Source: Burkholderiales bacterium (GTDB lineage: Bacteria > Pseudomonadota > Gammaproteobacteria > Burkholderiales > SG8-39). From it: a stretch of 53,142 bases of DNA. Positions within the stretch are counted from its first letter, which is position 1, and each line of letters begins with the position of its first letter. The notes under the pieces are model-generated. The model was not told the origin of the DNA. It worked only from the letters and a program-made list of their open reading frames with translations, and made no database searches. The DNA is taken from NCBI GenBank assembly GCA_014860445.1, contig JACZJT010000067.1:1-53142 (forward strand), in the 5' to 3' direction. Shown in pieces: positions 14,415-31,482 of the stretch. The position numbers and the translations under genes are program-made.

Positions 14415-14942
14415 TCAGGCGTCGCCACGCGCCGGATAGTCCTTGGCAACGACAAAATCCAGGCTCTGCAGGATCTCGCTGAAATGCGGCCGGCAAAAAG
14501 GCATGGTCGAGGTGGTGCCCCAGTAGAGCACGCTGTCGGGCCGCACGATGAACAGCCCCGGTTCGCTGAACAGCTCAGGCTCCACGATACCCACGGAAGT
14601 CGCGCCCTTGGAGCGCGAAACATACAGGCCCCAGTTGCGCGCCGCCTCGATGGTAAGGCCGTAGGCGACGCGCAGATTCGCGAGGCCCCAGCCCGACTTC
14701 GCCTGTTCGGCGCGGTCCTTCGCATCTGAACTGGCGGCAATCACCGTCACGCCGCGCTTTTCGAACTCCGGCAGCAGTTTCTCCAGTTCGGACAGATAGC
14801 GCCGGCAAATCGGGCAATGCAGTCCGCGATAGAACACCACCATGGTGAACTTCTGCGGCTTTTCGGCAGCAAGCGAGACACGCCCGCCGCCAACCAGATC
14901 GAGTTCGAGTGCGGGGACGGGTTTGTTTGGCATCAGCGACAT
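14415..14942 (-). CDS. Peroxiredoxin-like (AhpC/TSA family) thioredoxin-fold protein
   Basis: A 175-residue thioredoxin-fold protein with a CPIC active-site pair (C43, C46) in the place of the peroxidatic cysteine of AhpC/TSA proteins. The N-terminal strand order and the RYLSELEKLLPEFEKRGV helix fit the peroxiredoxin-like family that reduces peroxides or disulfides. The ATG at 14942 has GGAGGAG close upstream. No signal peptide is seen, although the gene just downstream is secreted. It is divergent from the DehI-family gene. The exact substrate is unknown. Confidence 0.85.
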   Translation of the reverse strand: MSLMPNKPVPALELDLVGGGRVSLAAEKPQKFTMVVFYRGLHCPICRRYLSELEKLLPEFEKRGVTVIAASSDAKDRAEQAKSGWGLANLRVAYGLTIEAARNWGLYVSRSKGATSVGIVEPELFSEPGLFIVRPDSVLYWGTTSTMPFCRPHFSEILQSLDFVVAKDYPARGDA

Positions 14943-15221
14943 AGTGCTCCTCCGAAAAATCATCAATTGGCGAAATAGGAATGCGTCGTTCCTTCCTTGG
15001 TCGCGGAAAGCGGGGATTTTCTTACACGGCGCCCGCACGGCGATTTCCGGGAATTCATGTATCATCGAACTCGGTAACGCTTCCCTGCCCGCCTTAATTC
15101 TTTCGAGACCATAACATGGGGGAAATTAATTAACGAATCGCATGCCTTCCCCCGCAATTGCAGCAGCGTTGACGGCAGCCCCGCAGACCGGCAGCGTCGC
15201 CACGATGATGGAGTCCAGCCA

Positions 15222-16121: not shown

Positions 16122-16694
16122 ATGGCCGAACAAGACGATCTGGCTCTATCCCTGGAGGCGCACCGAAAATACCTGCAGCGCTACGCGCAGTTTCACCTGC
16201 GCGACGCTTCGCTCGCCGAGGACGCGGTGCAGGACACGCTCATGGCGGCACTCGCGCAGCGCGATCGATTCGAAGGTCGCTCACAGCTGCGCACCTGGCT
16301 CACCGGCATCCTCAAGCACAAGATCATCGACATAACACGCAGTCGCGGCCGCGGGTTGCCTGCGGATGCTGTGTCACTGGGGGAAGACAGCGAAAGCTTT
16401 TCGGACTCCTTCAATGCCAAGGGGCAATGGGTCGATCCCCCGGCGGATTGGGGCATGCCCGATGAAGCGCTGGAGTCGAACCAATTCTGGCTCGTCTATC
16501 AGGAATGCTGCAAGCGCATGTCCAGGCGCGACGCCATGGTATTTTCGATGCGCGAGGTGATGGGACTGTCGTCGGAGGAAATCTGTAAGAAAATCGAAAT
16601 TACGACGACCAATCTGCATGTGATACTTTTCAGGGCGCGGTTGAGCTTGCGATCGTGCATGAACAAGAACTGGTTTGGGACCGATCATGAGTAA
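16122..16694 (+). CDS. ECF-type RNA polymerase sigma factor
   Basis: A 190-residue group 4 sigma factor. Region 2 (residues about 12-80) includes the DAVQDTLMAAL helix and the FEGRSQLRTWLTGILKHK core. A variable acidic linker rich in Asp/Ser/Pro follows (85-115). Region 4 (120-178) has the MSRRDAMVF..EVMGLSSEEI helix-turn-helix. It overlaps the start of a small zinc-finger anti-sigma gene by eight bases, a classic sigma/anti-sigma pair under coupled translation. The targets are unknown; it lies just upstream of the selD fusion gene, which is suggestive but not proof of control. Confidence 0.92.
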   Translation: MAEQDDLALSLEAHRKYLQRYAQFHLRDASLAEDAVQDTLMAALAQRDRFEGRSQLRTWLTGILKHKIIDITRSRGRGLPADAVSLGEDSESFSDSFNAKGQWVDPPADWGMPDEALESNQFWLVYQECCKRMSRRDAMVFSMREVMGLSSEEICKKIEITTTNLHVILFRARLSLRSCMNKNWFGTDHE

Positions 16695-16890
16695 GTTGAT
16701 GTATTCCTGCGAGCAGGCAGCGAAGCTTTCCTCGCAGGCAATGGAACAGCCCCTGGCGCCCACGGAGCGCATACTGCTGGGCATGCACCTGATGATGTGC
16801 AAGGGGTGCACCGGTTTTGTCCAGCAGATCGAGTTTCTGCGCCGCGCGTCGCGTAAAATTCCGGAGGTACTGGAAAAATACGGGGACTGA
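16687..16890 (+). CDS. Zinc-binding anti-sigma factor (zf-HC2/ZAS type)
   Basis: A 67-residue protein with the HxxxCxxC zinc motif of ZAS anti-sigma factors (H34, C38, C41) and an upstream cysteine C8 as the probable fourth ligand. The short helical C-terminus would wrap the cognate sigma factor. There is no transmembrane segment, so it is a soluble anti-sigma. Some members release the sigma factor when the cysteines are oxidised, which would fit a redox or reactive-selenium signal, but that is inference. It starts inside the end of the sigma gene (16687 versus sigma stop at 16694). Confidence 0.87.
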   Translation: MSKLMYSCEQAAKLSSQAMEQPLAPTERILLGMHLMMCKGCTGFVQQIEFLRRASRKIPEVLEKYGD

Positions 16891-16959
16891 CAGCGCAGGC
16901 TCCGCACGGACCGGGCGTCCGCAGTTCCACGGCCCGCCTTCCTCGAAAGGAATGACGCA

Positions 16960-19245
16960 ATGCAATCGCCGGATCAACCGGTCCTCCGGGACATCGTGCT
17001 TGTCGGCGGCGGCCACAGCCATGTCGTCGTGCTCAAGCGCTTCGGCATGCGTCCCCTGCCCGGGGTGCGCCTCACGGTGATCTGCCGCGATACCCACACG
17101 CCCTATTCCGGCATGCTGCCCGGATACATCGCGGGACACTACAGTTACGACGAGGTGCATATCGACCTCTCGAAGCTGGCCCGATTTGCCGGTGCACGCT
17201 TCTTTCGCGATGAAGCGCTGGGGCTGGACCGCGACGCGGGCAAAGTGCTCTGTCGCAGCCGCCCGCCGGTGCCCTATGACGCTCTGTCGATCAATATCGG
17301 CTCCACGCCGCAGATGAGCGATGTGGCCGGCGCAGCCGAATTCGCGGTTCCGGTCAAACCGATCAACGGGTTCAACCAGCGCTGGCTGCTGCTGCTGGAG
17401 CGTGTGCGCAAGCACGCCGGGGCCACGCGCATTGCGGTGGTCGGCGGCGGCGCCGGCGGCGTCGAACTGACTCTCGCCATGCAGTACCGCTTGCGCCATG
17501 AACTGCGCGCAGCGGGACGCAATCCGGACGAACTCACCTTTCATCTGTTGACCAGCGGCCCGGTGATCCTGCCGACACACAATTCGTCGGTGCGCCGCGT
17601 ATTCGAGCGCGTGCTGGCCGAGCGCGGCGTTACCATGCATTGCAACGCCGAAGTCAACCAGGTATCGGCATCGCGCCTGCAAACGACAACGGGCGAAACC
17701 GTGGACGCCGACGAGATTGTCTGGGTCACGCGCGCAGGCGGCGCGCCCTGGCTGCGCGAAACCGGTCTGGCGCTGGATGGGGACGGCTTCATTCAGGTGA
17801 CGGACACCCTGCAGACCGTGACCGACCCGAAGGTGTTCGCCGCTGGTGATATTGCCAGCATGGTGAACCATCCGCTGGAGAAAGCCGGCGTCTTCGCAGT
17901 GCGCCAGGGACCGCCGCTGGCGGAGAACCTGCGCCGCGCCGTCGAGGGCAGGGCGCTCGAACCGTACCGACCGCAGAGCAGTTGGCTCGCGCTGATCAGC
18001 ACCGGCGATCGCTATGCGGTGGCCTCGCGCGGCGCACTCGGCTTCCAGGGCGCCTGGGTTTGGCGCTGGAAGGACTGGGTCGATCGCCGCTTCATGCGCA
18101 AATTCAGCGAATTTCCTGCGATGCAGGCCGGGTCCGCGGATGCCGCCGCGTCAACGGTCAATCTCGGCGAAGAAGAGGCCGCGCAAGCCATATCCGCAAT
18201 CGCCATGCGCTGCGGCGGCTGCGGCGCGAAAGTCGGCGCTTCAGTGCTGTCGCGCGCGCTGGGCGCGCTGAGTCCCGTCGATCGCGACGACGTGCTTATC
18301 GGCCTGCACGCGCCTGACGATGCCGCGGTGGTACGCGTGCCGCCGGGCAAAGCGATGGTGCACACCGTGGATTTTTTCCGCGCCTTCATCGATGACCCGT
18401 ATATCTTCGGCAAGGTTGCCGCCAACCATGCACTCGGCGACATATTTGCAATGGGCGCAGAAGCGCAGTCGGCCACGGCGATCGTCACCGTGCCGCCCGG
18501 ACTGGAAGCCAAGGTCGAGGACGTATTGTTTCAGATGATGTCCGGCGCAATCGAAGTGCTCAACGACGCTAACTGTGCGCTGGTTGGCGGCCATACCGGC
18601 GAGGGAAAAGAGCTGGCGCTGGGTTTCGCCGTCAACGGTTTGGTGGACGAAGATATTGCGGCTGTGATGCGCAAAAGCGGCATGCGGCCGGGCGATGTGT
18701 TGATCCTCACCAAACCGATCGGAACCGGCACCTTGTTTGCCGCGCATGCGCGCCTGGAAGCGCGCGGCCGCTGGATCGACGCGGCCCTCATTTCCATGTG
18801 CCAGTCGAACCGGCTGGGCGCGCAGTGCCTGCGCGAGCATGGTGCGACAGCGTGCACCGACCTGACCGGCTTTGGTCTGCTCGGACATCTGGTGGAAATG
18901 ACCCGCCCCTCGGGCGTGGACGCGGAATTGAATCTATCCGCGCTGCCGGTGCTGGAAGGCGCGGAAGAGACCAGCGCAGCCGGCATCCTCAGTTCGCTGC
19001 AGCCGGCCAACGTGCGTCTGCGCCGCGCACTGCGCAACCAGCAGGAAGCGATTAACCATCCGCGGTATCCCCTGATCTTCGACCCGCAGACGGCGGGTGG
19101 GCTGCTCGCCAGCGTCCCCGCGGAACGCGCCGACGCCTGCATCAAGGCCTTGCACGCCCTGGGCTATATACATGCAGCGGCCATCGGACGCATACAGCCG
19201 CAGGGTGAAATGCAAGAACCCATCGTGCTCAAGCTGAGTTCCTGA
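16960..19245 (+). CDS. selD: FAD-dependent oxidoreductase-selenide water dikinase fusion (SelD/SenC)
   Basis: A 761-residue two-domain protein. Residues 1-385 are a type II NADH dehydrogenase-like flavoprotein with an FAD motif VGGGHSH near the start, NAD motif VVGGGAGGVEL (about 162) and an FAAGD motif (about 294). Residues 410-761 are SelD, which makes selenophosphate from selenide and ATP. The catalytic segment reads CGGCGAK with C418, C421 and K424: C421 and K424 match the essential Cys17 and Lys20 of E. coli SelD, while its dispensable Cys19 is Ala here. Such fusions are known. The flavoprotein half may supply reduced selenium. In this neighbourhood it could act as SenC of selenoneine synthesis. 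TVP38 follows 8 bases later. Confidence 0.93.
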   Translation: MQSPDQPVLRDIVLVGGGHSHVVVLKRFGMRPLPGVRLTVICRDTHTPYSGMLPGYIAGHYSYDEVHIDLSKLARFAGARFFRDEALGLDRDAGKVLCRSRPPVPYDALSINIGSTPQMSDVAGAAEFAVPVKPINGFNQRWLLLLERVRKHAGATRIAVVGGGAGGVELTLAMQYRLRHELRAAGRNPDELTFHLLTSGPVILPTHNSSVRRVFERVLAERGVTMHCNAEVNQVSASRLQTTTGETVDADEIVWVTRAGGAPWLRETGLALDGDGFIQVTDTLQTVTDPKVFAAGDIASMVNHPLEKAGVFAVRQGPPLAENLRRAVEGRALEPYRPQSSWLALISTGDRYAVASRGALGFQGAWVWRWKDWVDRRFMRKFSEFPAMQAGSADAAASTVNLGEEEAAQAISAIAMRCGGCGAKVGASVLSRALGALSPVDRDDVLIGLHAPDDAAVVRVPPGKAMVHTVDFFRAFIDDPYIFGKVAANHALGDIFAMGAEAQSATAIVTVPPGLEAKVEDVLFQMMSGAIEVLNDANCALVGGHTGEGKELALGFAVNGLVDEDIAAVMRKSGMRPGDVLILTKPIGTGTLFAAHARLEARGRWIDAALISMCQSNRLGAQCLREHGATACTDLTGFGLLGHLVEMTRPSGVDAELNLSALPVLEGAEETSAAGILSSLQPANVRLRRALRNQQEAINHPRYPLIFDPQTAGGLLASVPAERADACIKALHALGYIHAAAIGRIQPQGEMQEPIVLKLSS

Positions 19246-19253
19246 AGCGCAGG

Positions 19254-19916
19254 ATGCGAGCAAAACTGTTTGCGGGTGTCGCCTTAGCCGTAGTGCTTGC
19301 TGCGATCTATTGGTTATTGCACGAGTCCGGCGCGATGGCGACCATACTGAACCGCGCTGCGCTGCACGATCACATCGCCAGCCTGGGTGCATGGGGACCG
19401 CTGCTGGTGATCGGCCTGATGGTGCTGGCGATTCTGGTGAGTCCGATACCGAGCGCGCCCATCGCGATGGCCGCCGGCGCTGCCTACGGCCATACATGGG
19501 GCACGCTTTATGTAATCTTAGGTGCCGAGATCGGTGCGTTGACCGCTTTCGGACTGGCGCGCTGGCTGGGCGGGGAAACGCTGCGACGCTGGTTTGGCGA
19601 CCGACTGACGGTGGGATTGCTCGGTTCGCAAAACGCGCTGATGGGTATCGTGCTGGTGAGCCGCCTGCTGCCGTTCATTTCCTTCGACATCGTCAGCTAT
19701 GCAGCGGGACTCACGGTTCTGTCGTTCTGGCGTTTCGCCATAGCGACGCTGGTCGGCATCGTGCCCGCGAGCTTTCTGCTGGCCCATTTCGGCGGCGAGA
19801 TGGCCACCGGCGAATCCGATCGCATCATGATTTCGGTGTTGGCGTTGGGTGCCATTACACTGATTCCTTTGGCGGTGAAACTCGTGCGTGACCGCCTGCG
19901 CCGACCACCTCCTTAG
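19254..19916 (+). CDS. TVP38/TMEM64 family membrane protein
   Basis: A 220-residue integral membrane protein of the SNARE-associated/DedA-like TVP38 family. Segments are an N-terminal helix (residues 3-20), a long hydrophobic region containing VSPIPSAPIAMAAGAAYG (about 63-80), and further helices to about 205, ending in a basic tail. The family is poorly characterised; relatives act as lipid scramblases or affect membrane homeostasis. It starts 8 bases after the selD stop and is surely co-transcribed. A second TVP38 domain occurs at the other end of the island, fused to a disulfide reductase. The substrate is unknown. Confidence 0.87.
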   Translation: MRAKLFAGVALAVVLAAIYWLLHESGAMATILNRAALHDHIASLGAWGPLLVIGLMVLAILVSPIPSAPIAMAAGAAYGHTWGTLYVILGAEIGALTAFGLARWLGGETLRRWFGDRLTVGLLGSQNALMGIVLVSRLLPFISFDIVSYAAGLTVLSFWRFAIATLVGIVPASFLLAHFGGEMATGESDRIMISVLALGAITLIPLAVKLVRDRLRRPPP

Positions 19917-20089
19917 CGCTTCGACCTCCCCATTTGCGTCAGCCACGCCGGCGGCAATCAAGCTCCCAGGCCGAATTCCGACATCGCCAGGATCACCTCG
20001 TGATTGCTTAAACGAAAATGAACTGTAAGCAACGGCATCCCTGGCGCGACCAAGGGCGTATCCATCTATATTCCCACCGGGGGTGATTT

Positions 20090-21052
20090 ATCAAATTCCG
20101 ACGACTTCTTTGTTGCATCGTTGTTCTTGCAGCTGCCGCCCCGGCAGCCCTGCTAGCGCAAGAGATGAATGGTTTCGACCTGAATGGATCGTTGATTCCC
20201 GGCGAGCAGATCCACGCAGGCGGACCACCCAAGGACGGCATTCCGGCGATCGACAAGCCGGATTTCACCAAAGCTCGGCTTGCGGGCTTTCTGCACGACG
20301 ATGACGCCGTACTCGGCATGGTCCGTAACGGCGTCGCACGCGCTTATCCGGTGCGCATACTCAACTGGCACGAAGTGGTCAACGACCGGTTCGGCGAGGA
20401 TGCGGTAGTCATCAGTTTCTGTCCGCTGTGCGGCACCGGCGCTGCGTTCGATGCCCGCGTCGACGGTCGCGTGCTCGACTTCGGCGTCTCCGGCCTGCTC
20501 TACAACAGCGACGTGCTGCTGTATGACCGGCAGACCCAGTCGCTGTGGTCGCAGCTGCTGGCGCAGGCGATCAGCGGCCCGATGAAAGGAAAGCGCCTGA
20601 CGCTGCTGCCGCTGACGCACACCAGCTGGGCCGACTGGCGCGGGCAACAGCCGGAGACCGATGTACTCACGACCAATACCGGCCAGACGCGGCCTTATGC
20701 TCGCGATCCCTACGCAGGTTACGAAAGCAGCGAACAGATCATGTTTCCGGTGGCGTTCCGCTCGGCCGGCTTTCACCCGAAGGAACGCGTGCTCGGTGTC
20801 AGGATAGGCGATGTGGCGAAAGCCTACCCCTTCGTCGAACTGGGCAAGACCAATGGCCTGGTACCCGACCGGATCGGCGACACCGCACTGAACATCCGCT
20901 TCGACCACAAAGCCTCGCGCGCCACGGCGCATACAATCGACGGGCGGCAGCTTCCTGCAGTAGTCGGCTACTGGTTCGCGTGGTACGCGTTCAATCCGAC
21001 GACCGCGGTGTTCCGTGCGGCGGAGCATGCTTCGCCGAAACGCGGCCGCTAG
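20090..21052 (+). CDS. DUF3179 exported protein, apparently starting at an ATC codon
   Basis: A DUF3179-family protein of unknown function, with the conserved FCPLCGTGAAFD cysteine segment and the SGLLYNSDVLLYDR core. The first usual start codon is ATG 20165, which lacks an export signal. The same frame extends upstream to 20090, encoding a textbook signal peptide: KFRR, a long hydrophobic run, then ALLAQE. The extension begins with ATC at 20090, 6 bases after GGGGG and part of a near-perfect GGGGGTGAT ribosome binding site (20079-20087); a TGA stop (20084-20086) rules out a longer frame. I therefore place the start at ATC, read as Met, though a base error (ATG to ATC) is possible. EgtD follows 69 bases later. 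Confidence 0.8.
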   Translation: MKFRRLLCCIVVLAAAAPAALLAQEMNGFDLNGSLIPGEQIHAGGPPKDGIPAIDKPDFTKARLAGFLHDDDAVLGMVRNGVARAYPVRILNWHEVVNDRFGEDAVVISFCPLCGTGAAFDARVDGRVLDFGVSGLLYNSDVLLYDRQTQSLWSQLLAQAISGPMKGKRLTLLPLTHTSWADWRGQQPETDVLTTNTGQTRPYARDPYAGYESSEQIMFPVAFRSAGFHPKERVLGVRIGDVAKAYPFVELGKTNGLVPDRIGDTALNIRFDHKASRATAHTIDGRQLPAVVGYWFAWYAFNPTTAVFRAAEHASPKRGR

Positions 21053-21121
21053 ACTTCGCCGCACTTGATACACTTGCGAGTGAATGTGTTGGTTAATACG
21101 GGTTCAACCGTTCGGAAAATC

Positions 21122-22096
21122 ATGACACTTCAAACCGGCCCGACATTTTTCTCCTTTCCCGCCGACGCGCTTGCGCAGGAAGCGGAGGTGGCTGCCGTCG
21201 TCGCGGGGTTGATGGCGGAGGCACCCCGGGTGTCACCCAAGTATCTCTACGGCCCGCTGGGCTCGCGCCTGTTCGACGCCATCACCGAATTGCCCGAATA
21301 TTATCCAACCCGGACGGAGAAAGCGCTGCTGGAATCCTGTCGTGACCGCGTCGCCCGCGCAACCGGCCCGGCACCGAAACTCATCGACCTCGGCGCCGGA
21401 AACTGCGAAAAAGCGCGCAGCCTGTTTGATGCGCTCAAGCCCGCCCAGTACGTCGCCGTGGACATTTCCGCCGACTTCCTGCGCCAATCGCTGTCGCAGC
21501 TTCAGCGCGATTTTCCGCATCTGGAAATGCTCGGCGTCGGCAGCGACTTTTCATCCGGCTTGCGCCTGCCCGACGCGGTCAGCCGCGACAACCGCCTGTT
21601 CTTCTATCCGGGCTCTTCGATCGGAAACTTCACGCCGGAGCAGGCGCTCACATTCCTAGCCGGTATTCGTGACCATTGTGTCGGGGCCCATGGCGGCGGC
21701 CTGCTGATCGGCGTCGACCTGATCAAGTCCGAAGCGCTGTTGCAAGCTGCTTACGACGACGCCCTCGGGGTCACCGCAGCCTTCAATCTGAACCTCCTAA
21801 ATAATTTGAATGCGCTGATCGGCAGCAATTTCTCAGTAGCCGACTGGCGCCACCGCGCACTGTTCAACGTTGAAGCCTCGCGCATCGAAATGCATCTCGA
21901 GGCCAGGCGCGATCTCGGCGTGCGCTGGCCCGGCGGCGCGCGCGCGTTTCGACAGGGCCAGCGCATCCATACCGAAAACAGCTACAAGTACGCCCTCGCT
22001 GATTTCAAGGCGCTGCTGGAGCGAGCTGGCTTCAGCCGCATCCAGTCATGGACCGACGATAACAACTGGTTTGCACTGTGCCACGCTGCGATTTGA
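21122..22096 (+). CDS. egtD: L-histidine N-alpha-methyltransferase EgtD
   Basis: A 324-residue SAM-dependent methyltransferase that trimethylates histidine to hercynine, the backbone of ergothioneine and selenoneine. Visible features are the substrate segment PEYYPTRTE (about 58-66), the SAM motif IDLGAGNCEKA (about 88-98), FYPGSSIGNF (about 160), and near the C-terminus HTENSYKY with the Glu/Ser pair that holds the histidine ring in EgtD. Length matches the roughly 320-residue family norm. The ATG at 21122 is chosen; a TTG at 21065 would add 19 unsupported residues. With SenA and SenB 6 kb downstream it is the expected hercynine source. No egtA, egtC or egtE is visible. Confidence 0.94.
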   Translation: MTLQTGPTFFSFPADALAQEAEVAAVVAGLMAEAPRVSPKYLYGPLGSRLFDAITELPEYYPTRTEKALLESCRDRVARATGPAPKLIDLGAGNCEKARSLFDALKPAQYVAVDISADFLRQSLSQLQRDFPHLEMLGVGSDFSSGLRLPDAVSRDNRLFFYPGSSIGNFTPEQALTFLAGIRDHCVGAHGGGLLIGVDLIKSEALLQAAYDDALGVTAAFNLNLLNNLNALIGSNFSVADWRHRALFNVEASRIEMHLEARRDLGVRWPGGARAFRQGQRIHTENSYKYALADFKALLERAGFSRIQSWTDDNNWFALCHAAI

Positions 22097-22149
22097 CTGC
22101 CTGTCCGTAGGCAGCAGACGCGGCTCCCCATCACCTGCCAGGAGTCGCT

Positions 22150-23370
22150 ATGGCCGTTCAGTCACATTCGCTTTCCTTTCCCGGCGCCGGCGGCGCAACG
22201 CTCGCCGCACGCCTCGATCTGCCGCCGGCAGGCCCGCCGATTGCCTACGCGCTGTTCGCGCACTGCTTCACCTGTTCCAAGGAAACCAAGGCCGCAACCT
22301 ATGTCAGCGCAGCCCTGGCCGAGCGCGGCATCGCCGTGCTGCGCTTCGACTTCACCGGCCTCGGCGGCAGCGAAGGGGAGTTTGCGAGCACCAATTTTTC
22401 ATCGAACGTTGAGGATCTCGTTGCGGCGGCCGACTACCTGCGCCAAAACTACAGTGCGCCCGCCGTCCTGGTCGGCCACAGCCTCGGCGGCACGGCAGTC
22501 CTCGCCGCCGCATCGCGTGTGCCAGAGGCGGTCGCGGTCGCAAGCATCGGCTCGCCTTTCGACCCCGCCCATGTGCTGCATCTGATCAAGAACAAGGCCT
22601 TGGTCGAGCGCGATGGCGAGGCCGAGGTCGATATCGGCGGTCGTCCGTTTCGCGTACGCCGACAGTTCCTCGAAGACATGTCGGGCAGCAAGCTCGGGGA
22701 CAAACTCGCGCGCATGGGCAAGGCGCTTTTGGTGATGCATTCGCCACGCGACAGCGTCGTCAGCATCGACAATGCAAGCCAGATATTCACCACGGCCAAA
22801 CATCCGAAGAGCTTCGTTTCCCTCGATCCGGCCGACCACATGCTGTCGCGGCGCGAGGATGCGCTGTTCGCCGGCAGCATTTTGGCCTCCTGGGCGATGC
22901 GCTACCTCGGCGTGGCGGCTGCGGCCGCGGCGGCGCCCGAACCCGGCAAGGTGGTGGTGCAGGAAACCCGCGATGGCAAATTCAGCCAGCGCGTGGTGGC
23001 CGGGCATCACGTGATCCGCGCGGACGAACCGGTCTCGGCCGGCGGCATGGACAGCGGCCTCGCGCCCTACGACCTGCTACTCGCCGGTCTCGGCGCCTGC
23101 ACCTCGATGACCATGCGCATGTACGCCGATCTCAAGGGATTTCCGCTCGAGCGCGCGACCGTCGAGCTGAAGCACGACAAGATTCACGCGACCGATTGCG
23201 CCGACTGCGAAACCAGAGACGGCAAGGTCGACCGCATCGAGCGGCTGATACGCCTGGAAGGCCCCTTGAGCGAGGAGCAGCGCGCCAAGCTGCTCGAAAT
23301 ATCGAACAAATGCCCGGTGCACCGCACCCTGCATTCGGAGATCAGCATTCCGACCGTTCTAGTTGATTAG
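22150..23370 (+). CDS. Bifunctional alpha/beta hydrolase-OsmC family protein
   Basis: A 406-residue fusion. Residues 1-255 are an alpha/beta hydrolase with elbow GHSLGG (serine about residue 117), aspartate in HSPRDSVV and histidine in DPADHML. Residues 270-406 form an OsmC/Ohr-type domain with two cysteines, one in [14 protein letters not shown] (about 317) and one in NKCPVHRTL (about 390), the usual peroxide-reducing or thiol-handling pair. This domain combination is widespread. AGGAG lies 6 bases before the ATG. The gene follows egtD by 53 bases and converges with the ABC-transporter operon. A role in detoxifying organic or selenium-based peroxides is possible but unproven. Confidence 0.9.
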
Positions 23371-23382
23371 GGCCGGACGAGA

Positions 23383-24195
23383 TCAGCCGCCGGGCCGCAT
23401 CTGGCGGCGGCGTACGAAGGCGCTGGCCGCATCCACCAATACGACCAGCGCGAACATGGCGATAATGACGCTGGAGGCCTGCGCTTCGTGCAGCAGCGAC
23501 AGTTCGTAGTAAAGCATTTGCCCCAGGCCGCCGGCGCCGACGAAACCTAGCACCGTCGCCATGCGAATATTCATCTCCCAACGATACAGGCTGTAGGCGA
23601 TGAGTTGCGGCGCGATCAGGGGTAGCGTGGCGTAACCGAACACAAGCGCAGGCGCCGCACCGCTTTCCACCAGCGCGCGCGCAGGCTCGGGCGCTGCATT
23701 CTCCAGGCTTTCCGCAAACAAACGTCCGAGCACACCCGACGTATGCAAGGCAAGCGCGAGCGTACCGGCGAACGGCCCCAATCCCGCGGCCAGCACCATC
23801 AAGGCCGCCCAGACCAGTTCCGGCACCGAACGCAAGGCATTGAGCAGGAAACGGGTCAGCGCTTTCAGCACCGGGCCCATGCGTCCAGCTGCGGGCAGCG
23901 CGAGCAGCAGTCCGGCGCCCGCCGCAAGCAAGGTTCCGAGCGCGGATATCGCCAGGGTTTCGAGTGTGCCTTTGGCGATTTTGCGGAGGAACTCGGCGCT
24001 GGTATCGGGAGGAAAGAAACGCAGGACGAAGCGCAGCATGCCGCGGCCCGATTCCGCGCTGAACAAGCGCGATAAATCCAGAGACAGATAGGCAAAACTG
24101 GCCCAGACGAGCAGCGACAGCAACAACAAAGTGAGCCAGCACTGCAGGCAAAAACCCATGGCCGCACGCCGCTCGGCAAAAGTGGCTGCGCTCAT
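23383..24195 (-). CDS. PhnE-like ABC transporter permease, second copy
   Basis: A 270-residue inner-membrane permease of the phosphonate-type (PhnE) binding-protein-dependent family. The hydrophobic helix at 15-40 is followed by the permease core (about 75-260) and the coupling-helix motif GFVGAGGLGQ, which contacts the ATPase. Its ATG overlaps the stop of the preceding permease gene (ATGA), so the two are made together and probably form a heterodimeric channel. It is the last gene of the senA-led minus-strand run and converges with the hydrolase-OsmC gene. By context the transporter more likely carries selenate or a related oxyanion than a phosphonate. Confidence 0.88.
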   Translation of the reverse strand: MSAATFAERRAAMGFCLQCWLTLLLLSLLVWASFAYLSLDLSRLFSAESGRGMLRFVLRFFPPDTSAEFLRKIAKGTLETLAISALGTLLAAGAGLLLALPAAGRMGPVLKALTRFLLNALRSVPELVWAALMVLAAGLGPFAGTLALALHTSGVLGRLFAESLENAAPEPARALVESGAAPALVFGYATLPLIAPQLIAYSLYRWEMNIRMATVLGFVGAGGLGQMLYYELSLLHEAQASSVIIAMFALVVLVDAASAFVRRRQMRPGG

Positions 24196-25028
24196 GCGAG
24201 CAGCTTTCGCAAAAACACGCTGAGCGCATCTGCCAGCAGAACCAACAGCAGAAACACGATCAGAATGGTCGAGACCTCGCCGCCGTTGAGCATTTTCATC
24301 GACTGATCCATCAACTGGCCCAGCCCGCCGGCGCCGACAAAACCCATGATCACGGAAGCGCGCACCGCGCACTCCCATCGATAGATAGTGTAGGAGGCCA
24401 GTTCCTGCGCCGCGCCCGGCAGCAACCCGTAGAAGAACGCCATCAGCCTGCCGCTTCCTGTTTCGAGCAGCACGCGCGCGGGACGCGTGTCGCCCGATTC
24501 CATGATCTCGGAATACACCTTGCCCAGCATGCCCCCATAGGTGAGGCCGATCGCCAGCACGCCCGCTGCAGGTCCCAGCCCGAAGGCGCGCACCAGCAAC
24601 AATGCCCAGACCAGTTCCGGGATGCCGCGCAATATCAGCAGCACCATGCGTGCGAGCGCGCGAATCGCCTCGCCCACACTGCGATCAGGACCGGGGCCGA
24701 TGCGCGAAACCGACAGGCTGTGGGTAAGCACCAGTCCCAGCGGCAGTGCGAGCAGCATTGCAAGCGCCGTGCCTGCGGTGGCCATGGCCAGGGTCTCTAT
24801 GGTTGCCTTGAGCACGAAAACGAGAAATTCGCCGCTTAGATTCGGCGGAAAAAACTGCCCGAGAAAACCGCCCATTACCGCAAGATTGCGCGCATCGAAC
24901 AGATCTACTGGTCGGAATTCTGCGATCTGCACCAGCGGCCACAAGGCCAGCAGCGCGAGCAGCGCCCAGCCTGCACGCCTGCGTGCGTCCGGATCGCGCA
25001 ACCGCGGTTGCGCTACGCTATGCGACAT
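24192..25028 (-). CDS. PhnE-like ABC transporter permease, first copy
   Basis: A 278-residue PhnE-family permease, paralogous to the one it overlaps. It has an N-terminal helix (residues 18-35), the core with ATIETLAMATAGT (about 70) and the same GFVGAGGLGQ coupling motif. The start at 25028 lies 12 bases after the ATPase gene. Two adjacent permease genes with a PhnC-type ATPase and PhnD-type binding protein make a complete importer. None of the C-P lyase genes (phnG to phnM) that go with phosphonate use are in the window. Confidence 0.88.
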   Translation of the reverse strand: MSHSVAQPRLRDPDARRRAGWALLALLALWPLVQIAEFRPVDLFDARNLAVMGGFLGQFFPPNLSGEFLVFVLKATIETLAMATAGTALAMLLALPLGLVLTHSLSVSRIGPGPDRSVGEAIRALARMVLLILRGIPELVWALLLVRAFGLGPAAGVLAIGLTYGGMLGKVYSEIMESGDTRPARVLLETGSGRLMAFFYGLLPGAAQELASYTIYRWECAVRASVIMGFVGAGGLGQLMDQSMKMLNGGEVSTILIVFLLLVLLADALSVFLRKLLA

Positions 25029-25040
25029 GGCGCAGATGCA

Positions 25041-25910
<870 letters not shown>

Positions 25911-25951
25911 GCTGCTGCAGCTATCGCTTCAGCACCCGGACTCGCGACATA

Positions 25952-26809
25952 TCATTTGATAAGCCCGGCCGATTTTGCGGCGTTCTCGATGCCGTCGTAA
26001 TTGGCCGCCTTGGTTGGAATGAACTTGGACGCACGCTGCAATTCCAGAATGACCTTGTTCGCCGGATTGGCCGGGTCGAGTTTGAGAAAGGCGGCGCTGA
26101 GTTTTTTCACCAGGGCCGGGTCGAGATCGCCGCGCACCGTCCAGTTGTAGTCGTAATAGGGCGGCGTCGACGCGAGCACCCGCACCTTCAGCGCATTGGG
26201 ATTTTTGCCGGCCATCAGCTTGTCCCACACCGAGGCATTGAGCACGCCGGCTTCGGCCTTGCCACCGGCCACGAACGCGACCGTCGCGTCATGCGCGCCC
26301 GAGAACGCGACGTTTTTGAAATCCTTGTCGGGATCGATCCCCGCCTGCAGCAGGAAAAAGCGCGGCATCAAGTGTCCCGAGGTCGAAGATGGCGAACCGA
26401 AGGCGAAGGTCTTGCCCTTGAGATCGGCCAGGGTCTTGGCTTTGCTTCCGGCCGGGACGATGAAACGGCTGGTGAATTTTTCGTCCTCGGCGCGTTGCAC
26501 GATCGGAATGGCGGTGCCGTTGGTGCGCAACTTCGCCTGCACGAATGTAAATCCGCCCAGCCAGGCAAGGTCCAGTTTGCCCGTGGCCAGCGATTCGACC
26601 ACGGCAGCATAGTCGGTCACCGGCGTGAACTCGACTTTCATGCCGGTTTCATGCGCGAGATATTCCCCCAGTGGCTTGAACTTGCGCTGCAGTTCGGTCG
26701 GCGCTTCATCGGGAATGGCGGATACCCTGAGTACGCCCTGTGCCACAACGCCTTGGGTGAAGGGCAGGCCGAATAGGGCAAGAATCAACACACGTAATAC
26801 AGTGTTCAT
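25952..26809 (-). CDS. PhnD-like periplasmic binding protein, putative selenate/selenium-oxyanion importer
   Basis: A 285-residue periplasmic solute-binding protein with a signal peptide (hydrophobic LILALFGLPF, cleavage after VVAQ or nearby). The mature start LRVSAIPDEAPTELQRKF and the segments PVTDYAAVVESL and LAWLGGFTFVQ resemble, from memory, the PhnD-related family annotated as putative selenate ABC transporter substrate-binding proteins, found beside selenium genes. It is encoded 171 bases downstream of senA on the same strand and heads the permease/ATPase genes. The ligand is inferred from family and context only; phosphonate, phosphite or another oxyanion remains possible. Confidence 0.85.
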   Translation of the reverse strand: MNTVLRVLILALFGLPFTQGVVAQGVLRVSAIPDEAPTELQRKFKPLGEYLAHETGMKVEFTPVTDYAAVVESLATGKLDLAWLGGFTFVQAKLRTNGTAIPIVQRAEDEKFTSRFIVPAGSKAKTLADLKGKTFAFGSPSSTSGHLMPRFFLLQAGIDPDKDFKNVAFSGAHDATVAFVAGGKAEAGVLNASVWDKLMAGKNPNALKVRVLASTPPYYDYNWTVRGDLDPALVKKLSAAFLKLDPANPANKVILELQRASKFIPTKAANYDGIENAAKSAGLIK

Positions 26810-26980
26810 AAAGACGTTCTCCGGAGAATTTTGCTTTCAACAACTGGCGGCAGTTAGCGGCCGAATACGCCATGGTGATGATTGCCGCTTTGACATCTGC
26901 ACGGGTGCAGAGGGGTCTACTATACCGTGGCCGCTGTGCGCATGCTGTACTTGGTCGGGATTGCACCCATAATCTTACAT

Positions 26981-28180
26981 TCAGATCGCGCAGCTGCGAA
27001 AACCGCAGAACATGTCGGCCCGCTCGGGCGCGTAGAAATTGCGCCAGGTATCGCGCAGCAGTCTCGGCGGCGTGGCGAAGCTGCCGCCGCGCAGCACGCG
27101 ATGCTCGTCGGCAAACCAGGGCTCGGAATATTCCTTGTAGGGATCGGCGGAGAATCCGGGGTAGGGCGAAAAGCGGCTGCCGGTCCATTCCCACACCCGG
27201 CCGCGCTCGAAGCGATCGGCGTGAGTGGCGGCGGCCAATTCCCATTCCGCCTCGCTGGGCAGGCGCCGCCCTGCCCAGGCACAGTAGGCTTGCGCTTCGT
27301 GCCAGCTGACGTGCATGACCGGCTGCTGCGCCGCGAGCGGCAACCAGCGATCGAAACGACGCATAGCCCACGCATCCCCTTCGCGCCGCCAGTAACGCGG
27401 ATGATCCAGTGCCAACCGCTCACGCATGACCCAGCCCGCCTCGCTCCAGAATTCACGCCGTGCGTAGCCGCCCGCTTCGACGAAGGCCGCGTATTCGGCA
27501 TTGCTTACGGCGCGCGATGCGATTGCAAACGCGGGCAAGCTGATTTCGTGCGCCCATTTTTCGTTGTCAAATACGAAGCCGGTGCCCGGGCCAGCCCCGA
27601 GCATGTGGCTTCCCGCGGGAATCGCCAGGTCCGTCGCGGGCGATGCATCGGTTTCCGGCCAGGACAAAGGCATCGTATAAGCCAGCGTTTGCCACATATA
27701 ACAAAACGCTTCGTTATGCATGTCCTGGTGAAACAGCGCGAGCTGTGCGAAATACGCGCGCGCATCACTAAGCGTTTCGCCATCGAGCAGCGACAGCGTA
27801 CGCTCGAGTACCGCCTCGATATAGGCCCGCGTTGCGCGCGCATCGGGCAGGTCCAGGGACCAGCGCGTGTCGTGCGCTACACGTGCCGAGTCGTACCAGC
27901 GATCGGCGTTAGGCAGCATCGAAGGCGCGGCGAAATCCCCGCCGCGGTGCAGCCAGAACTCCTGGAACCATGCGGTATGGCCGAGTTCCCACAGCGGCGG
28001 ATTGACGATCGGAAGCAAGGGAACGACGGCATTCCCGTCCTCGAGAAACCGTGTCAACACGCAGGTCAACTCGTGAGTCTCGGTCAGCCAATCGCGCAGA
28101 ACGTTCGCCGGCGGATGCGGCCGGTACAAGGAAAAATCCGGCCAGCCAGCGCGCGTCGCCGGCTCTGCTATATTGTCCAT
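26981..28180 (-). CDS. senA: EgtB-like enzyme, probable selenoneine synthase SenA
   Basis: A 399-residue non-haem iron enzyme of the EgtB superfamily. The N-terminal DinB-like domain carries the iron ligands H68 (ELGHTAWF), H151 and H155 (FHQDMHNEAF, the HxxxHxE pattern with E157). The C-terminal formylglycine-generating-enzyme-type domain has VMHVSWHEAQAYC, RVWEWTGSRF, VLRGGSF and a final CGFRSC. EgtB forms the C-S bond of ergothioneine; SenA, its selenium counterpart, joins a selenosugar to hercynine. The divergent SenB-type gene 79 bases away and the selD and selenate-type transporter context make SenA the better call. The ATG at 28180 follows GAGGAAG. Ergothioneine synthesis cannot be excluded. 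Confidence 0.87.
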   Translation of the reverse strand: MDNIAEPATRAGWPDFSLYRPHPPANVLRDWLTETHELTCVLTRFLEDGNAVVPLLPIVNPPLWELGHTAWFQEFWLHRGGDFAAPSMLPNADRWYDSARVAHDTRWSLDLPDARATRAYIEAVLERTLSLLDGETLSDARAYFAQLALFHQDMHNEAFCYMWQTLAYTMPLSWPETDASPATDLAIPAGSHMLGAGPGTGFVFDNEKWAHEISLPAFAIASRAVSNAEYAAFVEAGGYARREFWSEAGWVMRERLALDHPRYWRREGDAWAMRRFDRWLPLAAQQPVMHVSWHEAQAYCAWAGRRLPSEAEWELAAATHADRFERGRVWEWTGSRFSPYPGFSADPYKEYSEPWFADEHRVLRGGSFATPPRLLRDTWRNFYAPERADMFCGFRSCAI

Positions 28181-28259
28181 GATGTCGCTTCCTCTGCCAC
28201 GCCATGCATAAGCGAATTTTCTCCCGCTGGGCGTTAATATCGCTGCTGCGGCGCATTCC
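28181..28259. promoter_or_regulatory. Divergent senA/senB control region
   Basis: The 79 bases between the two divergent start codons must hold the promoters of both genes and the senA ribosome binding site. A TTAATAT near 28235 could serve as a -10 for senB, and TTATGC on the other strand as a -10 for senA, but neither has a convincing -35. I see no clear operator palindrome. Joint control of the two genes from this gap is an inference from layout. Confidence 0.4.
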
Positions 28260-29216
28260 ATGCGCATACTCATTGTAACGCCCGCAGCGCCCGGATCGCG
28301 CCACGGCAACCGCGCCACCGCGCTGCGCTGGGCTCGGCATCTGCGCGCGCTCGGACATGAAACCGAGATTGCGCTCGAATGGGACGGGCGCGATTGCGAG
28401 CTTCTCATCGCCTTGCATGCGCGGCGCAGCCATGCGGCGATTCGCGCCTGGAAAGCCGCGCACCCGCGGCTCCCCCTGATCCTGGTGCTCACGGGCACCG
28501 ATCTTTACCGCGATATACGCAGCGACGCCGACGCGCGCGCGTCGCTCGACCTGGCCGACCGCATGGTCGTCCTGCAAACCAAAGGCCTGGACGAATTGAA
28601 CGCGGCGCAGCGCGCGAAGACCAGCGTCATTTTCCAGTCGGTGCGCGCGGTACGGCGGCAGACGCCGCCGCGCAGCTATTTCCTCGCCACGGTGATCGGT
28701 CATTTACGCGAGGAGAAAGATCCGTTTCGCGCCGCACTGGCCCTTGCGCACCTGCCGCGGGCCGCGATCCGCGTGGTCCAGCTGGGCCAGGCGATGACAC
28801 CCGAAATGGGGCGTCAAGCGCGTGCCTTGATGCGCGCCGAGCCGCGCTACCGCTGGCTGGGCGAACTCGATCATGCCGGCGCGATGCGCTGGCTGGCGCG
28901 CAGCCACGCGATGGTGATATCGAGCCGCATGGAAGGCGGCGCCCACGTGGTTTCCGAGGCAATAGGCATCGGCGTGCCGGTCATCGCCTCCGCCATACCC
29001 GGAAATATCGGACTGCTCGGCGAACGCTATCCGGGTTACTACCCGGTCGCGGACGAGGCGGCGCTGGCGGAGCGACTTGCGCGCGCACAAAGCGATCCGG
29101 TCTGGCTGGCCGCACTGGAAGCAGCGGTAAAGGCGAGTGCACACGAAATCGGTCCTGCGGCTGAACGCGCAGCCATCGCCAAATTGATCACCGATTTGAT
29201 GTGCAGCCGCGAATGA
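28260..29216 (+). CDS. senB: Glycosyltransferase, probable selenosugar synthase SenB
   Basis: A 318-residue glycosyltransferase of GT-B fold, matching from memory the TIGR04348 family repeatedly found beside selD and now identified as SenB. SenB couples selenophosphate with a UDP-sugar to make a selenosugar, the selenium donor for SenA. Features are the N-terminal ILIVTPAAPGSRHGNR (residues 3-18), a short LVLTGTDLYRDI linker (76-87), and the C-terminal donor half with VIGHLREEKDP (about 140) and the sugar-nucleotide site SRMEGGAHVVSEAIGIGVPVIAS (about 220-243, E-x7-E type). It is transcribed divergently from senA. It starts at ATG 28260 with only a weak ribosome binding site. Confidence 0.9.
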   Translation: MRILIVTPAAPGSRHGNRATALRWARHLRALGHETEIALEWDGRDCELLIALHARRSHAAIRAWKAAHPRLPLILVLTGTDLYRDIRSDADARASLDLADRMVVLQTKGLDELNAAQRAKTSVIFQSVRAVRRQTPPRSYFLATVIGHLREEKDPFRAALALAHLPRAAIRVVQLGQAMTPEMGRQARALMRAEPRYRWLGELDHAGAMRWLARSHAMVISSRMEGGAHVVSEAIGIGVPVIASAIPGNIGLLGERYPGYYPVADEAALAERLARAQSDPVWLAALEAAVKASAHEIGPAAERAAIAKLITDLMCSRE

Positions 29217-29337: not shown

Positions 29338-31482
29338 ATGACCCGCCAACGCCTCGTACTGATCGCCCTGCTCCTGGGTGCTGTTCTCGCGTACTACAAC
29401 TTCGACCTGGGTCACTATCTCAGCCTGGAGTATTTCAAGAGCCAGCAGGCCGCCATCGAAACCTGGCGCGCGGCGCATCCGGCAAAGGCGGCGCTGGTCT
29501 ACTTTTTCGCCTACGTCGTGGTCACCAGTCTTTCGCTGCCCGGTGCGGCGGTGATGACGCTCGCCGGCGGCGCGGTGTTCGGCTTGCTTTGGGGGACGGT
29601 GCTGGTGTCATTCGCGTCCACGCTGGGCGCAACGCTGGCCTTCCTCGTATCGCGCTTCCTGCTGCGCGACTGGGTACAAGGCCAGTTCGGCGAGCGCCTG
29701 CGTGCCATCAACGCCGGTATTGCACGAGAAGGCGGGTTCTATCTGCTTGCGCTGCGCCTGGTCCCGGTCTTCCCGTTTTTTGTCATCAACCTGGTGATGG
29801 GTCTCACGACACTCCCCACCCGGACGTTTTACTGGGTCAGCCAGGCAGGCATGCTTCTGGGAACCATCGTCTACGTCAATGCCGGCACCCAGCTTGCGAA
29901 AATCGAGTCCCTGTCCGGCATACTCTCGCCCGCGATTCTCGCCTCGTTTGCACTGCTGGGCATCTTCCCCCTGATTGCAAAAAAGATTATCGAGCGTTTG
30001 CGCACCGTGAAGGTTTACGCGGGATGGAACAGGCCGCCGCGCTACGACCGCAACCTTGTTGTGATCGGCGCAGGCTCAGCCGGCCTGGTCACCGCCTATA
30101 TCGCCGCGGCGGTGAAGGCCAAGGTCACGCTGGTCGAGAAACACAAACTGGGTGGAGATTGCCTGAATACCGGCTGCGTGCCTTCGAAAGCCCTGATCCG
30201 CTCCGCCAAGCTCTTGTCTCATATGCGCCGTTCGTCTGAATTCGGCATCCGCGAGGCAAGCGCGAAATTCGACTTCGCCGAAGTGATGGAGCGCGTGCAA
30301 AGCGTCATCAAGAAAGTCGAGCCGCACGACTCCGCCGAGCGTTACACCGAGCTCGGGGTCAATGTGGTCGAGGGAACGGCGAAAATCGTCTCGCCCTGGG
30401 AGGTGGAAATCACGCGCAACGACGGTAGCGTGCAACGCCTCACGACGCGCAGCATCGTGATCGCCACAGGCGCGCGTCCCTTCGTTCCGCCGATTCCGGG
30501 CATCGAGGAAACCGGCTATCTCACCTCAGACACCGTGTGGAGTCTGCGCCAGCTACCGCGGCGCCTGGTGGTGCTCGGCGGCGGCCCGATCGGCTCCGAA
30601 CTCACCCAGACCTTTGCACGGCTCGGAGCCGAAGTCACGCAGGTGGAAATGGCGCCGCGCATTCTGATCCGCGAGGACCCCGAAGTCTCCGACCTGGTGA
30701 CGCAGCGTTTTCGCGGCGAAGGCATAGCCGTCCTGGTCAATCACAAGGCGAAACAGTTCATCGTCGAAAACGGGGAAAAGATCCTCATCGCCGAACACGA
30801 GGGCCGGGACCTGCGCATCCCTTTCGACGCGCTGCTCGTCGCCGTCGGGCGCGTCGCCAATCTGAAAGGCTATGGCCTGGAGGAACTCGGCATAGCGACA
30901 AGCCGCACCGTCGACACCAACGGATTCCTGCAAACCCGGTTTCCCAACATCTACGCCGCGGGTGATGTTGCCGGGCCGTATCAGTTCACCCACACTGCCG
31001 CGCATCAGGCCTGGTATGCGGCGGTGAACGCGCTGTTCGACCCGTTCAAAAAATTCCGTGCGGACTATTCGGTCATTCCCTGGGCGACATTCGTCGACCC
31101 GGAAGCGGCACGGGTGGGGTTGAACGAGATCGAAGCAAAAGAACGCGCGATCCCCTATGAAGTATCGGTCTACGGCATCGACGATCTGGACCGGGCGATC
31201 GCCGATGGCGAGGCCCATGGCTTCATCAAGGTACTCACGGTGCCCGGAAAGGACAAGATACTCGGCGTCACCATCGTAGGCGAACACGCCGGCGATCTGA
31301 TCGCAGAATATGTGCTCGCGATGCGCCACGGCATCGGGCTCAACAAAATCCTCGGCACCATCCATATCTACCCGACCATGGCGGAAGCCAACAAGTACGT
31401 GGCGGGTGTCTGGAAAAAGGCGCATGCGCCGCAGAAACTGCTGCAGTGGGTCGAGCGCTTCCATGCCTGGCGGCGCGGGTGA
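29338..31482 (+). CDS. TVP38 membrane domain fused to a mercuric reductase-like disulfide oxidoreductase
   Basis: A 714-residue fusion. Residues 1-220 are a TVP38/TMEM64 membrane domain (helices about 5-22, 50-95, 130-165, 195-215). Residues 235-705 are a full flavin disulfide reductase: FAD motif VVIGAGSAGLV, redox pair GGDCLNTGCVPSK (cysteines about 279 and 284), NAD motif VVLGGGPIGSE, FAD motif YAAGDVAG and the dimerisation domain ending in GTIHIYPT with the active-site histidine. It lacks the extra metal-binding cysteines of true MerA. The membrane domain would tether a reductase to the inner membrane. The substrate is unknown; the location next to senB invites a selenium-reduction hypothesis. 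A DUF547 gene overlaps its stop (GTGA). Confidence 0.92.
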   Translation: MTRQRLVLIALLLGAVLAYYNFDLGHYLSLEYFKSQQAAIETWRAAHPAKAALVYFFAYVVVTSLSLPGAAVMTLAGGAVFGLLWGTVLVSFASTLGATLAFLVSRFLLRDWVQGQFGERLRAINAGIAREGGFYLLALRLVPVFPFFVINLVMGLTTLPTRTFYWVSQAGMLLGTIVYVNAGTQLAKIESLSGILSPAILASFALLGIFPLIAKKIIERLRTVKVYAGWNRPPRYDRNLVVIGAGSAGLVTAYIAAAVKAKVTLVEKHKLGGDCLNTGCVPSKALIRSAKLLSHMRRSSEFGIREASAKFDFAEVMERVQSVIKKVEPHDSAERYTELGVNVVEGTAKIVSPWEVEITRNDGSVQRLTTRSIVIATGARPFVPPIPGIEETGYLTSDTVWSLRQLPRRLVVLGGGPIGSELTQTFARLGAEVTQVEMAPRILIREDPEVSDLVTQRFRGEGIAVLVNHKAKQFIVENGEKILIAEHEGRDLRIPFDALLVAVGRVANLKGYGLEELGIATSRTVDTNGFLQTRFPNIYAAGDVAGPYQFTHTAAHQAWYAAVNALFDPFKKFRADYSVIPWATFVDPEAARVGLNEIEAKERAIPYEVSVYGIDDLDRAIADGEAHGFIKVLTVPGKDKILGVTIVGEHAGDLIAEYVLAMRHGIGLNKILGTIHIYPTMAEANKYVAGVWKKAHAPQKLLQWVERFHAWRRG

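What the first reader, a model, noticed from the sequence alone, without database searches (positions are those of the whole stretch)
16960..29216. A selenoneine biosynthesis island with all expected enzymatic steps
Within 12 kb there are a SelD fusion (selenophosphate), EgtD (hercynine), a SenB-type selenosugar synthase and an EgtB-like enzyme divergent from it that best fits SenA. Together they cover every enzymatic step of the known senABC pathway plus its hercynine precursor. The usual sulfur-route genes (egtA, egtC, egtE) are absent, which favours selenium over ergothioneine. What appears new is the extended neighbourhood around these genes.
Basis: partly seen in the sequence, partly recalled or inferred. 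Interest (0 to 1): 0.88.

Follow-up and report, generated by a model that had tools for sequence, protein, structure and literature searches.

The report
Selenoneine gene island with selenium importer
A bacterium carries in one 12-kb stretch the genes to make selenoneine, a selenium-containing antioxidant, next to a predicted importer for its selenium, and that importer belongs to the same protein family as a puzzling transporter of ocean picocyanobacteria.

Summary
The island is real. All four enzymes pass their NCBIfam cut-offs: NDH-SelD fusion, EgtD, SenA (510 bits, cut-off 420; EgtB model 288, cut-off 360) and SenB (396, cut-off 300). SenA groups with solved SenA, away from EgtB and OvsA. 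This is the published senABC route plus hercynine synthesis.

Less obvious is an ABC importer downstream of senA. Its binding protein is TIGR04553, "putative selenate" transporter. Solved picocyanobacterial PhnD1 proteins (phosphite binders of debated role) also pass the TIGR04553 cut-off; PtxB does not. All ten published PhnD1 pocket and cap residues are identical in the window protein. In the order, 15 of 66 such binding proteins lie in one stretch with SelD, and none of 65 with the C-P lyase genes searched. I propose a selenite importer: the pocket fits a pyramidal XO3 anion rather than selenate.

Enzymatic pathway about 0.93, selenium importer about 0.8, selenite specifically about 0.65. 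No transport or product assay was possible.

The parts
16960..19245 (+). NDH-SelD fusion: FAD/NAD(P) oxidoreductase domain fused to selenophosphate synthetase (the SenC role)
   Evidence: TIGR03169 526.3 bits (310), TIGR00476 297.3 (125); CGGCGAK motif at aa 418, (that Cys and Lys of this motif are catalytic is recalled)
21065..22096 (+). EgtD, histidine N-alpha-methyltransferase making hercynine
   Evidence: TIGR03438 375.9 bits (290.9)
26981..28180 (-). SenA, selenoneine synthase
   Evidence: NF041186 510 bits (420); tree; start at the Met of 28180 inferred
28260..29216 (+). SenB, selenosugar synthase
   Evidence: TIGR04348 396.3 bits (300); catalytic residues
25952..26809 (-). Periplasmic binding protein of the importer (TIGR04553, PhnD1 type); proposed selenite binder
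   Evidence: 368.5 bits (250); ten pocket and cap residues identical to Pm_PhnD
25041..25910 (-). ATPase of the importer, PhnC-like
   Evidence: best match TIGR02315 212.8 bits, under its cut-off of 266.1
24192..25028 (-). Permease of the importer, PhnE-like
   Evidence: TIGR01097 200.1 bits, under its cut-off of 216.7
23383..24195 (-). Second permease of the importer, PhnE-like; the open frame runs to 24378, start at 24195 inferred
   Evidence: TIGR01097 237.9 bits (216.7); Met positions
29338..31482 (+). VTT membrane domain fused to a MerA/lipoamide-dehydrogenase-like flavoprotein; weak candidate for the final reduction step
   Evidence: also in the five nearest relatives L015-L019; role inferred only
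19254..19916 (+). VTT-domain membrane protein directly behind the NDH-SelD gene; role unknown
   Evidence: PF09335; 8-bp gap; also by SelD in L015 and L018

Best explanation
This is a selenoneine (sen) island with its own importer. Proposed flow: (1) the PhnD1-type binding protein captures selenite (HSeO3-) in the periplasm and the PhnC/PhnE/PhnE-like module imports it (family and linkage shown; ligand inferred). (2) Selenite is reduced to selenide, perhaps with help of the oxidoreductase domain fused to SelD (inferred). (3) SelD makes selenophosphate. (4) SenB joins it to a UDP-sugar to give a selenosugar. (5) EgtD makes hercynine. (6) SenA joins hercynine and selenosugar; elimination and reduction give selenoneine. 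Steps 3-6 follow from membership in characterised families and were not assayed here. Selenite is preferred over selenate because the conserved pocket holds three oxygens and caps the fourth position with a tyrosine.
For: Enzymes over curated cut-offs, SenA tree, SenB residues. Importer: TIGR04553 (7); PhnD1 chains 5lq5 and 7s6g pass the same cut-off, PtxB does not; tree split TIGR04553+PhnD1 against PtxB at 100/100 (95); ten pocket and cap residues identical. Linkage: of 66 over-cut-off genomes in 300 of the order, 15 counting the window have SelD in the same stretch; 0 of 65 fetched have the C-P lyase genes searched; of 15 sub-cut-off relatives 0 have selenium genes. SelD in 60 of 66 genomes with the protein against 155 of 234 without; SenA in 32 of 66 against 33 of 234. 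Other traits and phyla: mnmH...SBP-selD (69), beside selA-fdh, Chloroflexota sen loci L088, L089.
Against: No binding, transport or product data. 51 of 66 loci show no SelD nearby (22 of the 65 fetched stretches are under 19 kb), and 6 of 66 genomes show no SelD over cut-off. In the window's six-member SenA clade the importer is seen only in the window and L018, and in L015 EgtD follows SenA directly. PhnD1 binds phosphite tightly, and its students favour a phosphate transporter. A P. putida protein named phosphonate/selenate binding protein is about three times more abundant without phosphate. In L088 and L089 two of the ten pocket residues differ. Five of eight plasmid loci examined show no selenium gene.
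Confidence: 0.75

Rival explanations
1. The enzymes make selenoneine, but the importer carries selenate, as its NCBIfam name says.
For: The family name; the selenium linkage fits either oxyanion.
Against: The PhnD1 pocket with its tyrosine cap disfavours a fourth substituent (PMC5700983 passages) and all ten residues are kept. But PhnD1 does hold phosphate in a crystal at lower affinity, so tetrahedral anions are not excluded outright.
Confidence: 0.12
2. The enzymes make selenoneine, but the importer is a phosphite, phosphate or phosphonate transporter that sits there by chance.
For: PhnD1 members bind phosphite at nanomolar and phosphate at lower affinity; the permeases and ATPase are PhnE/PhnC-like.
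Against: SelD in the same stretch in 15 of 66 over-cut-off loci and C-P lyase genes in 0 of 65 fetched, with differing gene orders; operon with mnmH and selD on a Sphaerotilus plasmid. ptxD was not searched.
Confidence: 0.15
3. The EgtB-like enzyme makes ergothioneine, and SelD serves only tRNA selenouridine.
For: EgtD is present; SenA and EgtB are homologous; the host has SelU.
Against: EgtB model under cut-off, SenA model over it; a separate EgtB exists; SelU has its own SelD neighbour without an NDH match; SenB has no part in the sulfur route; SelD occurs in 63 of 65 genomes with SenA over cut-off against 152 of 235 without.
Confidence: 0.04

Closest known systems
senABC cluster of Variovorax paradoxus DSM 30034 (Kayrouz 2022, not read; seen through PMC9814287 whole text, and passages of PMC10702425 and PMC10891094)
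   Same: SenA, SenB and a selenophosphate synthetase in one locus; SenB active-site residues kept
   Different: Here SelD is fused to an oxidoreductase and lies 8 kb away, EgtD is inside the island, and an ABC importer follows senA
TIGR04553 putative selenate ABC transporter binding protein
   Same: 368.5 bits, cut-off 250
   Different: I read the ligand as selenite; here it lies in a sen island
PhnD1 of Prochlorococcus and Synechococcus (5lq5, 7s6g)
   Same: Both pass the TIGR04553 cut-off; the ten pocket and cap residues are identical
   Different: Described as phosphite or phosphate binder; not reported beside selenium genes in what I read
NDH-SelD fusions of cyanobacteria (PMC1273633, passages)
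   Same: Oxidoreductase domain before SelD
   Different: There noted with ybbB; here inside a selenoneine island, while the genome has another SelD by SelU
EgtB sulfoxide synthase
   Same: Homology and His motifs (ELGHTAWF, HQDMHNE in the window)
   Different: Apart in the tree; EgtB cut-off not met

Membership tests
SenA (NF041186) | Score over the curated cut-off of 420 | tested here: met
   510 bits
SenA (NF041186) | Groups with solved SenA, not with EgtB or OvsA | tested here: met
   30-row group with 8k5i at 94/82, just short of the starred level; EgtB rows split off at 99/89; the 8k5i branch is long
SenA (NF041186) | Makes selenoneine from hercynine and selenosugar | not testable with these tools
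   Needs enzyme assay
SenB (TIGR04348) | Score over the cut-off of 300 | tested here: met
   396.3 bits
SenB (TIGR04348) | N20, T23, K158 and EGGAHV | tested here: met
EgtB (TIGR03440) | Score over the cut-off of 360 | tested here: not met
   288.4 bits
EgtD (TIGR03438) | Score over the cut-off of 290.9 | tested here: met
   375.9 bits
SelD (TIGR00476) | Score over the cut-off of 125 | tested here: met
   297.3 bits; CGGCGAK motif, (catalytic role recalled)
'fusion_not_SelD' (TIGR04369) | Score over the cut-off of 700 | tested here: not met
   456.7 bits
TIGR04553 selenium-linked binding protein | Score over the cut-off of 250 | tested here: met
   368.5 bits
PhnD1 (Pm_PhnD type) | Ten pocket and cap residues | tested here: met
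   10 of 10 identical
PtxB phosphite binders | On the PtxB side of the tree; Tyr at the F90 position | tested here: not met
   Split at 100/100; Phe at that position
Selenite transporter (proposed) | Binds and imports selenite | not testable with these tools
   Needs binding and uptake assays

The most novel reading that the evidence does not exclude
TIGR04553 and picocyanobacterial PhnD1 are one family of selenite importers. The PhnDCE transporter, whose PhnD1 is reported in all 97 picocyanobacterial strains of the Cyanorak database (PMC10284923, section read) and is now read as a phosphite or phosphate transporter, would supply selenium to their NDH-SelD fusion; its tight binding of phosphite would be fortuitous, because protonated phosphite and biselenite are both pyramidal XO3 mono-anions. 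In the window the same importer is coupled to selenoneine synthesis.
Probability: 0.5. Interest if true: 0.8.

Novelty: new variant of a known kind. Interest (0 to 1): 0.55.

Why it matters
If true, a widespread family of ABC importers gets a concrete ligand, and selenium metabolism gets a dedicated first step. It would also answer the question left open for picocyanobacterial PhnDCE (why strains that cannot use phosphite keep a transporter that binds it) by a simple binding test. For selenoneine it marks a natural cassette from trace selenite to product.

Tried and rejected
SenA/SenB without selenium: many SenA-like loci of the second large clade show SenA and SenB but no SelD nearby. I asked whether their genomes lack SelD, which would suggest a sulfur product. 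47 of 50 genomes searched (42 of the 45 of that clade) have SelD over cut-off, so this was dropped.

Conserved neighbours: clustering of ORFs round 81 SenA-like loci gave many overlapping-frame artefacts and lineage synteny (lpxB and an RNA methyltransferase-like protein among five representatives annotated). The VTT/MerA-like fusion is shared with the five nearest relatives, elsewhere only weak oxidoreductase matches occur (L049, L065, L093), so it stays a weak candidate.

Neighbours of TIGR04553 loci without selenium genes: of 8 representatives scanned, 5 had a Pfam match (TctC, LGT, MurJ, SDR, SBP_bac_3) and 3 none; nothing points to phosphorus or selenium. ptxD was not searched in any locus.

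AlphaFold2 of the binding protein with 6 sequences gave mean pLDDT 62.8, too poor for a fold search; none was run. A scan of viral contigs found no relative.

Literature: no paper linking PhnD-type proteins with selenite turned up (listings); the library lacks most subscription papers, including the Nature sen paper. The phrase 'selenate ABC transporter' occurs in 3 papers, of which I opened one (PMC9426549). The main text of PMC10284923 has no word beginning with 'selen'; its supplement was not seen.

Full report
Observation. The window is a whole contig (C25) of a 4.6-Mb genome in 73 contigs, listed as 99.52% complete. By SenA the nearest relatives are Burkholderiales and Betaproteobacteria MAGs (82% identity for L015). 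The SenA frame opens at 28498, but the likely start is the Met at 28180, so senA and senB diverge from a 79-bp gap.

SenA or EgtB. The protein scores 510 bits with the SenA model (cut-off 420) and 288 with the EgtB model (cut-off 360). Its best solved relatives are SenA structures (8k5i, E 2e-97); OvsA and EgtB are weaker. In a tree of 86 rows (80 loci, the window, the own EgtB, four solved references) the EgtB rows and OvsA stand apart and the window falls in a 30-row group with 8k5i SenA (94/82, just short of the starred level; the reference is a long branch). SenB carries counterparts of N20, T23, K158 and EGGAHV (PMC10891094, passages).

Genome context. The same genome carries an EgtB on C68 (577.5 bits), nearest in the PDB to 8qf6, 6qki and 6o6l; a second EgtD on C34; SelU on C40 with another SelD beside it that shows no match to the NDH domain; and no SelB over cut-off. 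It may therefore make ergothioneine and selenouridine too, while the island has a SelD and an EgtD of its own.

The importer. Behind senA on the same strand follow a binding protein, an ATPase and two permeases. The binding protein belongs to TIGR04553, 'putative selenate ABC transporter' (368.5 bits, cut-off 250). Its closest solved relatives are picocyanobacterial PhnD1 proteins. Chain letters of 5lq5 and 7s6g themselves pass the TIGR04553 cut-off (301.6 and 338.3); P. stutzeri PtxB does not (166.4). In a tree of 97 rows the two PtxB references and 14 of the 15 sub-cut-off relatives lie on one side, TIGR04553 and PhnD1 on the other, at 100/100; the fifteenth, L174 (220 bits), lies on the TIGR04553 side. 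Several rows there have long branches.

The pocket. Bisson et al. describe the phosphite pocket of Pm_PhnD (PMC5700983, passages): oxygens held by Y46, S126, T127, S128, H158 and D205, a tyrosine cap Y206 bound to D13 and N176, and F90 where T. erythraeum PtxB has Y100. All ten are identical in the window protein. Of the 65 other over-cut-off proteins of the order sample 38 have the same ten, 24 have a variant with E, D and N at 13, 176 and 205, and 3 differ otherwise or are cut short. Of the 24 of variant type only 1 was linked to selenium genes, so its ligand is less sure. The Chloroflexota proteins L088 and L089 keep 8 of 10. All 7 plasmid-borne proteins tested keep the ten. Such a pocket suits a pyramidal XO3 mono-anion. 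Biselenite is one; selenate is not. The authors took the contact with D205 as a sign of a mono-anionic ligand; by recalled pKa values selenite (about 8.3) stays more protonated in neutral or sea water than phosphite (6.7, also given in that paper).

Linkage. In 300 genomes of the order TIGR04553 is over cut-off in 66. I fetched the stretch round all 65 outside the window, up to 20 kb; 22 of the 65 are under 19 kb because contigs end. SelD lies in 14 of these 65 stretches, so in 15 of 66 with the window; SenB, SenA or SelU accompany it in 12 of those 14 (L123 and L136 show SelD alone; L130 shows SelD with an EgtB/SenA-like match). C-P lyase genes (phnG, H, I, J, M) were found in none of the 65. 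As a control I fetched 15 sub-cut-off relatives from the upper part of the list: 0 have selenium genes; 3 match phnM and one of these also phnH, phnI and phnJ. Gene orders differ among linked loci (L121 SenB-SelD-SBP; L140 SenA-SelD-SBP; L142 and L151 with SelD and SelU), which argues for repeated association. At an assumed chance of 2 to 5% per locus even 14 of 66 has P of 5e-11 to 4e-6. Co-occurrence points the same way: SelD in 60 of 66 genomes with the binding protein against 155 of 234 without (p 2.5e-5), SenA in 32 of 66 against 33 of 234 (p 2e-8); these tests ignore relatedness. Outside the order the transporter stands with SelD, SenA and SenB in two Chloroflexota loci (L088, L089). On plasmids I examined 8 loci out of 1104 records with a match: one has mnmH-ATPase-permease-SBP-selD in a row, two have it divergent from an fdh-selA run, and five show no selenium gene (the Aeromonas record had no annotation there and was searched by protein match). 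So it goes with all three selenium traits, as a general selenium importer would.

Against. Most TIGR04553 loci are unlinked, and 6 of 66 genomes show no SelD over cut-off. In the window's own six-member SenA clade the importer is seen only in the window and L018, several of the other stretches being short, and in L015 EgtD directly follows SenA: the importer is a variable part of the island. Pm_PhnD binds phosphite within the 50-240 nM range given for three proteins; Shah et al. conclude on a constitutive phosphate transporter and show a PhnD1 crystal with phosphate, while calling the situation paradoxical (PMC10284923, passages and two sections). In P. putida a protein called phosphonate/selenate binding protein is present with and without phosphate, about three times more abundant without (0.309 against 0.959%), while PstS1 rises about eight times (PMC9426549, one section); whether it is TIGR04553 I did not test.

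What is known. The senABC pathway is published (PMC9814287, whole text; PMC10702425, passages). NADH-dehydrogenase-like/SelD fusions in Prochlorococcus and Synechococcus, which also have ybbB, were noted in 2005 (PMC1273633, passages). The selenium link of TIGR04553 is implied by its NCBI name. What I did not find in print (a library without most subscription papers) is the joining of TIGR04553 with PhnD1, the reading of the ligand as selenite, or the placing of this importer in sen islands.

Verdict. As a biosynthetic island it is a member of a known kind; its importer makes it a variant and yields a testable claim about a widespread transporter. Shown: family membership, arrangement, linkage, pocket identity. 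Inferred: ligand, transport, product.

Noticed in passing
window 16122-16960: An ECF-type sigma factor (TIGR02943, 219.7 bits, cut-off 162.2) and a short Cys-containing ORF lie directly upstream of the NDH-SelD gene; they may control it.
   Followed up: no
L112 and L127: Loci with EgtB over cut-off (571.8 and 566.6 bits) together with EgtD, SelD, SenB and the TIGR04553 importer; L112 shows no SenA in the stretch, though its genome has SenA elsewhere. A possible mixed sulfur/selenium arrangement.
   Followed up: partly
genomes G300-G349 behind 50 SenA-like loci: In 32 of the 50 genomes the SelD match contains an in-frame TGA, as expected if SelD is itself a selenoprotein there.
   Followed up: no
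window 22150-23370: Alpha/beta-hydrolase fused to an OsmC domain beside EgtD; sub-cut-off match (50.6 bits, cut-off 95) to an 'OsmC-related (seleno)protein' model.
   Followed up: no
window 20165-21052: DUF3179 protein (302.8 bits), 12 bp before EgtD; among the fetched SenA loci matched by phmmer only in L018.
   Followed up: partly
window 14415-15065: Peroxiredoxin-like protein with a sub-cut-off match (40.4 bits, cut-off 120) to 'SelL-related redox protein'.
   Followed up: no
L192 (Methylorubrum populi plasmid pMPOP01): Annotated senA and senB on a 25-kb plasmid with an IS6-like transposase gene abutting senA and an IS256-like one nearby, no selD in the stretch shown: sen genes can sit on mobile DNA.
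   Followed up: no
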